Made by a program: the position numbers and the translations under genes. Below are positions 36,527-41,359 of a stretch of DNA of 64,000 nt, piece by piece (the stretch's first letter is position 1; the number at the start of each line of letters is the position of its first letter). Under the pieces are notes generated by a model. That model worked only from the letters and a program-made list of their open reading frames with translations, made no database searches and had not been told where the DNA came from. Origin of the DNA: Phlegmacium glaucopus (Eukaryota > Basidiomycota > Agaricomycetes > Agaricales > Cortinariaceae); assembly GCA_015039465.1 (NCBI GenBank), contig MU129999.1:244671-308670 (forward strand), in the 5' to 3' direction.

Positions 36527-39500
36527 TCAACAAATAAGAATTGAATCCATACATAAGAGATTGTTCAATGCTGTCTGTACAGCCTCTTCAACCAACAATG
36601 CATGATTAGCATCATTTTCATAAGAAAAGCCTTTGAAAGGATTTGAGAATGTATGTTTGACAGGACTTGTTATATGAGAAAGATTCTCACATTCAAAAAT
36701 ATTTTTAATTGCTTGCTTGACAGAGGCATCACAAGTTGACTGCTGATAAATTTGAGTAGCTTTTCCCAAAGTATTTGATGATGCTTTGTGAAGAAAGAAA
36801 GACAAGTGGCCAATAATAGCTGCAACTAGTAGGAAAGTCAGAGCATAGGAAAGATAAATAAATCAGATGCATGCCAATTGCACAGTATGTAGCTTCTTCA
36901 AAGTTGAACTTGGTAGATAGGCTGGAACACTTGAAAAATGATGAAATTTATCACTTTTCAGCCAGTGTATTTCCAAAGAGAAAAGACTCACAATGGGTGA
37001 CATAATTTTGGAGATGGAATCCTGTACATTGAAATTTATAAAAGCTGGACATAAAAAGTGAGTACAGTGGTGGGAATGAAGCAAAAAATAATAATCACCA
37101 AAGGTCATAGAGATTTGAAAAAGGCTGGGAGTAAATATAATACTTACCATCTGTTCAAAAATATTACATAGATAAGCAGAGAAAAAGGCAAACCACAACA
37201 TTTTGGCACATACTTTCTGTTGAGAAATGTTTGTCATAGAGTAATTGATGAATAAAATTACTGCTCAACATACATACTGCCCAAAAGATATGCCAGTTGA
37301 GTAAGCAAAAATAAAGATATGACCAGGGCACTTACATACTGCCCAAATAGATTGTAACATCACAAAAGACAGGTGAAATAACAGCTTTCTTGCACTTACT
37401 TCCTATCATCAAAGACAGTAAGAAAGCATACATCAATAAAAGAGGGTGACAGAATAATAAAGACTTTGCACTTACTTTCTGTCAAAAGAGTAACCTAGAA
37501 TCAAGGCAGATCAAGGCAGTCTTGCACATAGTACTTACTCTCTGTCAAAAGAATAAGTGAAGGCAGATCAAAATGGCCTTGCACTTACAAACTGTTAAAA
37601 AGAGTGAGTCAGAGTCAAGGTAGATCAAGATGGTTCTGCATTTATGTACCTCCTATCAAAGGAGTCAGCTAGAGTCAAGGCAAATCAAGATGGTCTTGCA
37701 CTTACCTCCTGTCAAAAGAGTAAGCCAGAGTCAAGCCAGAGATCTTGTCTAGATCTTGTACTTACAGTCTGTCCAAAGAAGTAAACTAGATTCACCAGTG
37801 GGAAGGCAGATAAAGATGGTCTCAGACTTACAAACTGTCAAAAGAGTAAGCTAGAGTCAAGGCAGATCAAGATGGTCTTGCACTTACTGGCTTTCAGAAG
37901 AATAAGCTACAGTCAAGACAGGTCAAGATGGTCTTGGACTTACAGCCTGTCAAAAGAGTAATCTAGAGTCAAGACAGATCAATATGGTCTTGGACTTACA
38001 GTCTATTAGAAGACTAAATGAGAGTCAAGGCAAATCAAGATGTTCTTGCCTTACATCCTGTCAAAGGAGTAAGCTAGAGAAAAGGCAGATTAAGATGGTT
38101 GTAGACATAGACTTACAGCCTACCAAAAAAGTAAGCTAGAGTCAAGGCAGATCAAGATTTTCTTACACCCTGTTGAAAGGATAAGCTAGAGTCAAGGAAG
38201 ATCAGGTGGTTACTGTCTTGCACATACATCCTGTCCAAAGAGTAAGCTAGAGCCAAGGCATATCAAGATGGTTTTGTACTTACAAACTGTCAAAAGAGTA
38301 AACTAGAGTCACAGCAGATTAAGGTGGTCTTGCACTTACAAACTGTCAAAAGAGTAAGCTAGAGGCAAGCTAGATTGAGACAGTCTTGCCCTTACAGCCT
38401 GTCACAAGAGTGAGCTAGAGTCAGGGCAGATCAAGATGGTCTTGCACTTACATCCTGTCAAAAGAGTAAGAGTCAAGCCAGATCAATATCATGCTAGTAT
38501 TTCACTCACAAACTGTTGAAGCAGTAAGCTAGAGGTCAAGCATAGTGATGCCAAAGTTCAGTTCAGTTCAGTTCAGCAGCATTTTTTGCTGAACTGAGAA
38601 CTGAACTGACTAAGTTTTTCCTGAACTGAACTGAACTGTTAAAGAACTGGTTCGAACTGAACTGAACTGAAGAACTGTTATAAATTCTATATTTTACTTA
38701 TTATTGGAAATTTTATGGTCCAAGGACCATCCTTAGGCCTTAGGCACTTAATTCCTACTCATGTATGATCTCAGGACCCCTTGAGAATATATAACACCAC
38801 TGATTTGTATTTATGTTCCAAAATGGATAATGCTAATATATAACATAATCACATAATATACCAAGTCTGGCCATTATCTCCTTGCTCAATCATTGTTTTA
38901 CTCCCAAAAGGACTTCCAAATAATTTGTACATCACTAAAGAACTAATTTCCAGGAAATAAATCAATATATAGGAATTTCTCATCCTTCCAGGACCTATCA
39001 GTTCAGCAGTTCAGTTCAGTTCAGTTCAGTCAGTTCAGGTTCAGTGAGTCAGTTCAGAACTGAACTTTGGCATCACTAGATGAGATTGGCTTTTTTTTTT
39101 TTTTTTTGTCAATTTAGGTCTTTGAAGCAGAGCTCCATGTTGACATTACATGCTTAATTATATACTGTGCTACATGGGCCCCTAATGCCCTTAAACCCAT
39201 CCTTGCAGCCCCACAAAGTGTTACATTCCATCACACGTTACTCCGGTCCAACCGTTGGTGTTAAGTTTAAAAGCAAAGGAGAAGTCATGTCGGAGTTACT
39301 CCGGAATGGACGGAACGGAACCGGAACAGTAACCCGGAAAGGACGTTGGCCTCAGCATATGTGCTGTGCCGCCCAGCTCCTAAGGTGTCCTGATTTCGGA
39401 ACGGAAGAAGAAAGTAATAAGTCGGAAGACCTCAGTGACTTAGAGGAAAACAAGAGGAGGGGAACTAAGTTGATATTTGAACTAAGGTAAAACATACAAG

Positions 39501-41359
39501 TTCGAGTACTTTAAATATAAAGAGAATTCCTGTCAAAAGAGTAAGCTAGAGTCAAGGCAGATCAAGATATTCTTGCACTCACCAACTGTCAAAATAGTAA
39601 GCTAGAATTAGGACAGACTGAAATGGTCTTACACTTACCTCCTGTCAAAAGAGTAAGCTAGAGTCAAGGCAGATCAAGATGGTCTTGTACTTACAAACTG
39701 TCAAAAATGTAAGCTAGAATCAATCCAGATCATGATGTCTTGCACTTACATCCTGTCAAAAGAGTACTAAGCTAGAGTCAAGGTATCAAGATGGTCTTGC
39801 AGTTACCTCCTGTCAAAAGAGTAAACTAGAATCAAAGCAGATTGGGATGGTCTTGTACTTACATCCTATTTAAAGAGTAAGATAGAGTCAAGGCATGGTC
39901 TTGTGCTTACAATCTATCAAAAGAGTAAAGTCAAGGCACATCAAAATGGTTTTGCACTTACAATCTGTCAAAAAAAATAATCAAGGTAACAACATAATAA
40001 TAACACTTTTTATACCCACACGCTGTATTGATATATGTTAGTCCAAAGTGTTCAGTAAATGTCCAAGATAACATCTACAAAAATTGATCAGTTGTCAATG
40101 GCTTCTTTAGTCTGACCAAATACATACTACAATTTGTGGAAAATATGCCAGAACCATTGCCATGAAATATGCCCAGTCTCCTTTATTCTCCTTAAAAGAC
40201 ATTAAGAGAGTTGATTCCTTCAATTTCAAAACTCTAGGATTCATGTTAATGGTGGCAATTTGGAAACATCATGGTTCTCCACCTTTCAACCCCATATTTA
40301 ATACAGACCTCAACATTGTTTTGCTGTCTTGAAAGAAAGAGCTGTTGTAATTCTTCACTAGATAATGCAGCTGTTGTTTTTTCAATCAAGTCTCTACAAT
40401 CAGCTCCAGGCTCATGCATCTCTATAACAATTAGCCAAATAGTTGTTAACGGCTATAACACTTACTTCGAAATTCAACATATGCTTTTGGTAGATATTTA
40501 AACTCTTCAAATCGTTGACGAATACTCTGTTCAAAATCAGTCCAAGCTTTTTGTGGAGCTTGTTCCATTGCCTCAGATCTGTTACCTTCCTTCATGAGTT
40601 GCTTAATTTTAGCAATATCAAGAGAGTCGGCCTTGGTCCACAGAACAATCACTGGCACTTCACAGACTTATCCTTCACAGTAACATATTAATAAGACGAA
40701 CCACACATACCAAGCCCTGTCCCACATTCATTGAAAAATTTCTGCTCTGCTGCTGCGATTGGTCGGTCGTCAATCGTTGGAATGCAGTACCTGCCCAAAA
40801 TATTTTATTTCTGTCAAAGACAGTTGTTCTCTAAAGGTGAGAACTAACACACCAGATTGCATGAAATTGTTCCTTCACATTTTTTGCGCTCAAACGCTCC
40901 TTAATGAACTCCAGTGCTAGCCCCAGCACCCGAGGATTGCCGGCTTCAAAACCGTGAAAGATAAAACCAGGGTTGCTCTCAAATATCAGTTGATTCTTGA
41001 TGTCGCGCGCTCCACGCTGCGGTTAGAGGATATGAATTGAACATAACCTAACACTAGTACATTAACGGGAACCGCTTACCCACATTGGCATGGCTGGCAG
41101 ATTACTAAGGGCCGATGACTCGATCTGAGATTGTGGGCATGAATGTCAGTATCTTGCATGAACTTTCACCATATGCTTTCACCATTTCACCATTTGGACT
41201 GAAGATTGTAGGTTGTCTTGTAGCGTTGCAGAATCTGTGCAGGATTGTTGTCATGCCTGCGTTGGCTCGCCCGATCACGAGGATACGGAAACGAGTAAAA
41301 TTTGCTTGCAGTTCCTGAATCTGCTCAGCAGTGAGTTGGGGTTTCGATGAAATAGACAT
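36527..41359 (-). CDS. GTPase-family protein with a chain of single-codon exons
   Basis: Minus strand. Exons 41183-41359, 41080-41124, 40853-41016, 40711-40790, 40466-40657, 40283-40421, 40128-40233 join in frame. They encode a P-loop GTPase-like domain of a family common in agaricomycetes: RFRILVIGRANAGMTTIL, NPGFIFHGFEAG, IWYCIPTIDDRPI, VIVLWTKAD (G4), then LSRQQNNVEVCIKYGVER. The next exon starts at 40074 (end uncertain). From 39964 to 37148 there are 32 intron-like units separated by exactly 3 nt. The final exons are 36992-37021, a piece starting near 36920, and 36527 to ~36825 with AAIIGHLSFFLHKASSN. The P-loop Lys is Met, and the usual DSRGF reads GF, so nucleotide hydrolysis is doubtful. 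It could be a living diverged gene or a recent pseudogene. Confidence 0.6.
38543..39078. repeat. Hairpin element in the intron array
   Basis: Termini are TAGTGATGCCAAAGTTCAGT and its complement. Both ends are filled with CAGTT-type repeats in opposite orientations, and the middle is AT-rich. The array sequence reads on across it (GGTCAAGCA / GATGAGATTGGC), but no 8-bp duplication is evident. The TAGTGATG ends place it near hAT MITEs and near the element at 4086-4241. Confidence 0.7.
39090..39525. repeat. Dispersed repeat F, copy 1
   Basis: It follows a T-tract and contains GACGGAACGGAACCGGAACA, CTCAGCATATGTGCTGTG and AACTAAGGTAAAACATACAA, which are shared with 49140-49410. It ends at GAGAATTC directly against the array acceptor. 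An open frame (39167-39490) exists only here and is broken in the other copy, so it is not taken as coding. Confidence 0.6.

What the first reader, a model, noticed from the sequence alone, without database searches (positions are those of the whole stretch)
36527..41359. A gene with about 32 tandem single-codon exons
Seen directly: on the minus strand, 32 consecutive units of about 56 bp each read as a small intron (GT...AG, often GTAAGTG...GACAG) followed by exactly 3 nt. All 32 triplets are exactly 3 nt, all 32 following GTs and all 32 preceding AGs are intact, while inner positions and unit lengths (48-76 bp) vary freely. No triplet is a stop codon. The array is preceded by seven in-frame GTPase-family exons and followed by open exons that it joins in frame. 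Known: fungal introns are this short; single-codon exons are extremely rare and arrays of them are not something I know of. Inferred: constraint has acted on splice sites but not on intron bodies, so the units were or are spliced. They probably grew by tandem duplication of one intron-plus-codon unit. Alternatives: the whole array is skipped as one large intron, which keeps the frame because every unit adds a multiple of 3; or splicing is partial and gives a family of protein lengths.
Basis: partly seen in the sequence, partly recalled or inferred. Interest (0 to 1): 0.95.

Follow-up and report, generated by a model that had tools for sequence, protein, structure and literature searches.

The report
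Protein segment encoded one codon per exon
In a mushroom-forming fungus, dozens of related genes appear to spell out a highly variable stretch of protein one codon at a time, each codon being its own exon between nearly identical tiny introns, which bears on how splicing copes with three-base exons and how new protein sequence arises.

Summary
The window gene (41359-36527, minus strand) parses into 43 exons: seven GTPase-like exons, 33 exons of exactly one codon and three C-terminal exons, open for 461 codons. The same genome, inferred to be Phlegmacium (Cortinarius) glaucopus, holds such arrays at about 40 loci. In 38 of 40 fetched loci I parsed 1457 three-base exons; 2 are stop codons, against 135 expected. 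GT/AG bases are substituted at 1.0%, intron middles at 9.3%. Two short contigs encode GTPase part, variable segment and C-terminus in one open frame, as spliced RNA would. So the triplets are best read as translated single-codon exons coding a hypervariable linker. Simple tandem duplication of one intron-plus-codon unit is not supported: units with identical introns have nearly random codons, neighbouring introns are no more alike than introns of different genes, and an array's core introns look of one age. Sister genes with flanks 90-99% identical have unrelated core codons. How new codons come to lie between identical introns is open. No RNA reads were available, and the window copy's GTPase is probably inactive.

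The parts
40128..41359 (-). Seven exons of the GTPase-like part: 41359-41183, 41124-41080, 41016-40853, 40790-40711, 40657-40466, 40421-40283, 40233-40128. P-loop reads GRANAGMT and the DSRG of relatives is missing (HGFEAG against HDSRGFEAG)
   Evidence: Open joined frame, AG/GT at every junction; P0001 76% identical over 66% of the query; motifs compared with P0001
39583..40022 (-). First nine single-codon exons (CGT ATT ATT GAT GAG GAT TTT GAG TTG) and their introns
39087..39527 (-). Inserted element inside the intron after the 9th codon; one other full-length copy (99%) among the listed genome matches
   Evidence: query 1-441 at C126:114411-114853
38545..39082 (.). Repetitive element with inverted CAGTTCAGTTC-rich ends inside the same intron; 38 other listed copies at 94-99% identity, plus one at 90%
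   Evidence: 40 of 1359 candidates scored, so a lower bound; ends read
37148..38512 (-). Remaining 24 single-codon exons (TTT ... TAT TAT AAA ATG); the last five introns before ATG are much more diverged from the consensus (12-20 changes)
36527..37021 (-). C-terminal exons 37021-36992, 36929-36875 (GC donor), 36825-36527 (stop TGA)
   Evidence: residue order agrees with P0121, P0007 and P0002; C-terminal family hits

Best explanation
The locus belongs to a gene family with about 40 array-bearing loci in this genome, encoding an N-terminal GTPase-like domain, a hypervariable linker and a conserved C-terminal region. The linker is written codon by codon: each codon is its own 3-nt exon, separated by introns of about 53 nt that are near copies of one consensus. 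The spliceosome removes each short intron separately, with skipping always frame-neutral, and the joined codons are translated. Linker sequence is renewed much faster than the rest of the gene: the core of each array was laid down within a short time with identical introns and an array-specific set of sense codons, then decayed by point mutation, while the first one or two and the last few units are older. Shown here: sequence structure, constraint, frame, family, ages, turnover. Inferred: splicing in vivo, translation, and that renewal works by copying and shuffling of units while their introns are still identical.
For: 33 codons in phase 0 on both sides in the window, ORF of 461 aa without stop. 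GTPase-part or C-terminal hits beside every array place listed (compared by eye). 2 stops in 1457 triplets against 135 expected, 133 if shuffled within arrays; the other two reading offsets show 62 (67 expected) and 195 (154 expected). GT/AG 1.0% against 9.3% substituted; 5 short frame-breaking exons against 51 expected. P0121 (285 aa on a 955-b contig) and P0007 (295 aa on 1373 b) read through GTPase part, a segment of about 50 residues and the C-terminus, with no room for the gene's usual introns. Deposited model P0002 contains 20 residues that are L042 array codons in order with four exons skipped (compared by eye; best of 40 loci, score 16 against 5). Core introns: dispersion of changes within arrays 0.87 pooled, median 0.85 in 34 arrays, while arrays differ strongly; no trend along the array. 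L010/L015 flanks 902 of 1002 and 1032 of 1040 identical, L022/L035 954 of 1013 and 659 of 708, with unrelated core codons. Codon repertoire is array-specific (G 1055 against 619 +- 18; same codon given same residue 0.757 within, 0.599 between).
Against: No RNA reads or cDNA from this species were available. P0121 and P0007 are only inferred to come from spliced RNA, and their genomes are unknown. P0002 is an odd model fusing two neighbouring genes, so its codons need not rest on transcripts. The window copy has a degenerate P-loop and insertions in the array, so it may be a pseudogene. Two arrays hold an in-frame TAG (L011, L015), L035 a 2-nt exon, L036 a 2-nt exon, L033 a 1-nt exon, L025 a 4-nt exon. 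L020, L025 and L039, three of the youngest arrays, abut runs of N. Two other young arrays, L022 and L035, have codons more alike inside than most (base identity 0.47 and 0.52), and identical triplets are commoner within arrays (9.0% against 5.5%), as duplication would give; but one-step neighbours are not in excess within arrays.
Confidence: 0.78

Rival explanations
1. The array is a non-coding satellite inside one long intron; the spliceosome skips it, and AG-NNN-GT is just the repeat's own sequence.
For: Skipping would keep the frame. In P0002 the linker of the second gene (L043) is absent, YFPQIV joining DSISKIMSPI directly. A period-56 repeat is found by TRF.
Against: 2 stops in 1457 triplets against 135 expected; splice dinucleotides nine times less substituted than intron middles; some relatives carry a coding segment at exactly this place.
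Confidence: 0.06
2. Introner-like invasion: a mobile intron inserted repeatedly, always 3 nt downstream of an existing copy, cutting an older contiguous linker exon into codons in one burst per gene.
For: Introns behave as independent near copies of one consensus, of one age within an array; codons are unlinked to introns; a coding segment lies at this place in a Laccaria model and, shorter, in two Suillus models.
Against: L010 and L015 share 1032 of 1040 bases downstream of the array but their core codons do not align, so those codons were not simply inherited from a common exon. C at the third base is 1 of 1271 in array codons against 14% in the longer exons of the same loci, though CpG decay before GT could cause that. 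Every array place listed lies in one gene family. No contiguous linker exon was seen in the loci read.
Confidence: 0.25
3. Saltatory tandem amplification of one unit followed by very strong diversifying selection on the codons.
For: Arrays are tandem, the old edge introns resemble the consensus by eye, some block duplications keep both introns and codons (L009, L016, L047), and the young arrays L022 and L035 have relatively similar codons.
Against: Other young arrays with unmutated introns already have unrelated codons (L039, L025, L020). Over 38 arrays there is no relation between age and codon similarity (Spearman -0.09). One-step codon neighbours are not in excess within arrays. Edge units of L010/L015 keep codons as well as introns.
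Confidence: 0.15
4. Splicing is partial: skipping of single codons gives each gene a family of linker lengths and sequences.
For: Every skip is in frame; P0002 lacks four of L042's array exons.
Against: No isoform data; P0002 may be a prediction artefact.
Confidence: 0.3

Closest known systems
Micro-exon genes (MEGs) of Schistosoma
   Same: Strings of very short exons in a variable gene family; the abstract of PMC10526429 gives exons of 3-81 bp
   Different: There exon length varies and introns are long (up to 5 kb). Here nearly every array exon is one codon, introns are about 53 nt and near-identical, and the host is a fungus
Introner-like elements (ILEs) of fungi
   Same: Near-identical spliceosomal introns in many copies (PMC4457414, abstract and three passages read)
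   Different: ILEs sit in unrelated genes; here all listed copies lie in one gene family, tandemly, exactly 3 nt apart
Agaricomycete era-like GTP-binding / G domain-containing proteins
   Same: N-terminal domain, and in some members a variable segment and a C-terminal region at the same places
   Different: No gene with single-codon exon arrays turned up under that name in what I read; the exon structure of other species could not be inspected
Single very small exons in animals
   Same: Exons this small can be spliced (search listings with start of abstract: PMC9929638, a 4-bp exon; PMC12686416 holds the term 3-bp exon for RPS24)
   Different: Isolated exons, not arrays of up to 96

Membership tests
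Micro-exon gene (MEG) | Many consecutive short exons with lengths in multiples of 3 | tested here: met
   1457 three-base exons in 38 of 40 loci
Micro-exon gene (MEG) | Long introns between the micro-exons | tested here: not met
   882 of 1346 introns following a triplet are 53 nt; the rest 39-129 nt; the window's 1070-b intron holds insertions
Micro-exon gene (MEG) | Secreted product | not tested
   No signal-peptide predictor was run; the protein begins with a GTPase-like domain
Introner-like elements | Near-identical spliceosomal introns in many copies | tested here: met
   Consensus and column conservation; several units without any change
Introner-like elements | Present in unrelated genes (wording of PMC4457414) | tested here: not met
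   All listed places (173 matches, not all listed) and the 100 listed of 1349 fall at loci of this gene family, compared by eye; solitary copies were not searched for separately
Introner-like elements | Stable predicted secondary structure (feature recalled, not read) | tested here: not met
   Consensus z +0.58; three window introns, each folded without its final AG, z -0.43, -2.20, -0.29
Tandem repeat grown by local duplication | Neighbouring units more alike than distant ones | tested here: not met
   Lag-1 intron identity 0.853, between genes 0.860
Small GTPase fold (Pfam MMR_HSR1 / Arf) | Score above the Pfam cut-off | tested here: inconclusive
   Relative P0001 scores 21.8 bits against 22.3 (Arf) and 21.1 against 21.9 (MMR_HSR1), just below; the window protein itself was not scanned
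Small GTPase fold (Pfam MMR_HSR1 / Arf) | P-loop GxxxxGK[ST] (motif recalled) | tested here: not met
   Window GRANAGMT; P0001 and P0003 GRANAGKT

The most novel reading that the evidence does not exclude
These loci are a eukaryotic diversity-generating system: arrays are rebuilt in bursts by a process that copies an intron exactly from GT to AG, without its exons, and strings the copies between new or reshuffled sense codons, so that a gene acquires a wholly new linker while everything around it stays put.
Probability: 0.3. Interest if true: 0.98.

Novelty: categorically new. Interest (0 to 1): 0.94.

Why it matters
If the arrays are spliced as they read, splicing must join up to 96 exons of 3 nt in one message, far beyond the isolated microexons I know of, which gives a natural test bed for intron definition and for the lower limit of exon size. 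The near-identical introns with unrelated codons separate intron history from exon history within a few bases, so they speak directly to how spliceosomal introns multiply. A linker that is renewed wholesale while its flanks stay 90-99% identical points to a recognition or conflict role that can now be tested.

Tried and rejected
Phase 2 reading: I first took wrong flanking exons and read the array in phase 2 as a hydrophobic helix. Comparing the loci shown and the stop counts put it in phase 0, and one search confirmed this. An intermediate exon set had two wrong boundaries and gave eight internal stops; it was corrected.

Exons of 2 nt in the first parser (17) were mostly mis-set acceptors; a parser requiring AG left 3. 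A first conservation count without register control was blurred by indels and replaced. The dispersion included old edge introns (median 2.5); one search leaves out the first two and last six of each array.

Codon hypermutation: rejected because edge units of sister genes keep codons and block duplications keep them.

Rfam found nothing at its gathering scores in 36400-41500. GTPase paralogues without array (L013) show no match to the C-terminus and no array, so they do not show the ancestral linker. The AlphaFold model of P0121 had mean pLDDT 67.6 and mostly middling confidence across the variable segment, so no fold search was made.

Literature: ten full-text searches (one search was aimed at MEGs) listed no paper on arrays of single-codon exons as far as titles and abstract starts show; the library holds open-licence PMC papers only. 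PMC4457414: outline, abstract and three passages; PMC10526429: outline and abstract; all other papers: search listings only.
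Full report
What was checked. I read the minus strand of 36000-42800 and listed AG-NNN-GT sites. With boundaries set by splice sites and by relatives, it has 43 exons. 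Seven encode a GTPase-like domain, 33 are single codons in phase 0, and three encode the C-terminus. All acceptors are AG and all donors GT, except one GC after exon 42. The joined frame is open for 461 codons. The array is interrupted between the 9th and 10th codon by a 1070-b intron holding two insertions, one of them a repetitive element with 38 other listed copies at 94-99% identity.

A gene family. The genome holding the window (60.5 Mb, 259 contigs) was searchable. An 881-b piece of the array has 173 DNA matches, the unit junction 1349 matches against 26 for a reversed control, the GTPase part 228 and the C-terminal part 49. Every array place listed lies beside GTPase or C-terminal hits (compared by eye). 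Of the 40, 38 hold five or more three-base exons; with four array loci seen only as hits that makes about 42, some of them cut by gaps.

Single-codon exons. A parser without any preference for exon length between 1 and 260 nt, requiring AG and GT or GC, gave 1460 exons of 3 nt in the 40 loci. Of these, 1457 lie in the 38 loci with five or more, with a median of 38 and a maximum of 96 per locus. L013 has none and L038 three. The window counts 22 there because the parse stops at the insertion. Exceptions in arrays are few: exons of 6 and 9 nt, which keep frame, and in the core one of 1 nt (L033), two of 2 nt (L035, L036) and one of 4 nt (L025).

Why they look translated. Stop triplets: 2 TAG (L011, L015), no TAA, no TGA in 1457, where shuffling the three columns gives 135 (minimum 111 of 1000) and shuffling inside each array gives 133. 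The two other offsets are not depleted in this way: 62 stops against 67 expected, and 195 against 154. In 692 unit copies selected without using the end bases, GT and AG bases are changed 27 of 2768 times (9 of these are GC donors), mid-intron bases 2117 of 22836 times. In the core, 5 of 1332 exons are short and break the frame, where the intron indel rate predicts 51; 8 more are parsed as 57-249 nt. Two database proteins from short contigs of the jgi source, P0007 and P0121, run from the GTPase part through a segment of about 50 residues to the same C-terminus in one frame. The contigs, 1373 and 955 b, leave no room for introns, so I take them to be spliced RNA; the sample type is not known to me. 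The residue make-up of these segments is nearer to array codons than to five GTPase proteins of the family, by 13.8 and 7.1 bits. A deposited gene model, P0002, contains 20 residues equal to L042's array codons in order with four exons missing, but it fuses two neighbouring genes, so I count it as weak support. A coding segment at this place also stands in a Laccaria model (P0031), in unnamed jgi proteins (P0029, P0135, P0136, P0205) and, shorter, in Suillus models (P0130, P0132).

What the arrays are not. If one intron-plus-codon unit had been duplicated and then drifted, codons would be as alike as introns. They are not. Among 722 pairs of units whose following 53-nt introns are identical, 8.4% have the same triplet, against 5.9% expected at random. 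Introns one unit apart are 0.853 identical, introns of different genes 0.860. Units of one array share a rare intron variant in 213 of 31490 pairs, units of different arrays in 3334 of 915886. Young arrays show it plainly: in L039 five consecutive introns equal the consensus while their codons read ATT, TGT, TTT, TTT, TTG. L020, L025 and L039 hold runs of N, so single cases deserve care. L030, without N and with 4.2% mean divergence, has codons as mixed as between arrays; L022 and L035, also without N, have codons more alike inside (base identity 0.47 and 0.52).

Ages and turnover. Leaving out the first two and last six introns of each array, the numbers of changes per core intron are Poisson-like or a little more even: pooled dispersion 0.87 with 1114 degrees of freedom, median 0.85 in 34 arrays. 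Array means range from 1.9 to 6.5, far more than chance would spread them. There is no trend along the array (Spearman 0.04, p 0.16). The left-out introns at the ends mostly carry 12-20 changes and are older. So each core looks as if laid down at one time, at different times in different genes; the window's core mean, 6.2, is among the highest. Sister genes show that codons turn over: L010 and L015 are 1032 of 1040 identical downstream and 902 of 1002 upstream, yet their core codons align little better than shuffled ones (z 1.8). Over 410 gene pairs the mean z is 0.09, with 2 above 3. Codons are not hypermutating, because the last seven units of L010 and L015 keep both introns and codons and block duplications in L009, L016 and L047 keep both. 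Codon repertoires are array-specific (G 1055 against 619 +- 18), and equal residues use equal codons more often within an array (0.757) than between arrays (0.599). Yet one-step neighbours are not in excess within arrays (0.191 against 0.201). So codons within an array look like copies or unrelated.

Reading of the mechanism. Shown: codon-sized exons under constraint, family, one age per array core, turnover of codons. Inferred: intron-definition splicing of each small intron and translation of the joined codons. For renewal, the simplest process I can offer is a short phase in which units with still identical introns are copied and shuffled among arrays, with selection removing stops and frame changes. 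Divergence of introns would then stop exchange and freeze the array. This does not by itself explain where the varied codons come from. An introner that inserts 3 nt beyond an existing copy explains spacing, equal age and unlinked codons, but not the unrelated codons of L010 and L015. I leave the origin open. C is nearly absent from the third codon base in arrays (1 of 1271, against 14% in the longer exons of the same loci). Loss of CpG before GT or poor 5' splice sites would both do this.

Function. Relatives are annotated as G domain-containing or era-like GTP-binding proteins; Pfam scores of P0001, P0029 and P0031 lie under the cut-offs. No function is known to me. A linker replaced wholesale in a family of this size suggests recognition of something changing, which is a guess. 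The window copy has lost the P-loop lysine and the DSRG motif and holds insertions, so it is probably a decaying member, though its frame is still open.

Known kinds. Micro-exon genes of schistosomes and introner-like elements of fungi are the nearest (abstract of PMC10526429; abstract and passages of PMC4457414). Each shares one half of the pattern and fails a defining feature (see the membership test). Ten literature searches listed no paper on arrays of single-codon exons.

Noticed in passing
window 39527-39087 and about 39082-38545: Two elements inserted into one array intron: the first has one other full-length copy (99%) among the listed matches, the second 38 other listed copies at 94-99% with inverted ends
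   Followed up: partly
window 7302-7805 (+), 57481-57984 (-), 63384-63887 (-): Three near-identical open frames of 167 codons, probably one repeated element
   Followed up: no
window 50959-54224 (+): Open frames that look like a reverse transcriptase followed by a tyrosine-recombinase-type protein, as in DIRS-like elements (by eye)
   Followed up: no
window 8742-10205 (-): Open frame that looks like a Ty3-type aspartic protease and reverse transcriptase (by eye)
   Followed up: no
L013 (C9:151500-160500): Three GTPase paralogues on the window's contig, about 120 kb from the window gene, with no match to the C-terminal region and no array
   Followed up: yes
C237 (864 kb contig): Carries eleven places with array, GTPase-part and C-terminal hits, more than any other contig in the lists (counted by eye)
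   Followed up: partly
L035 (C220:3500-8300): A young short array whose core codons are AGG, TGG and TTG (after a first ATT) and which holds a 2-nt exon breaking the frame
   Followed up: partly
P0029, P0026, P0008, P0136 (database proteins): Proteins of unnamed jgi contigs with low-complexity E/L/R/H/Y-rich or D/L-rich segments at the same place; their genes may hold such arrays too
   Followed up: partly
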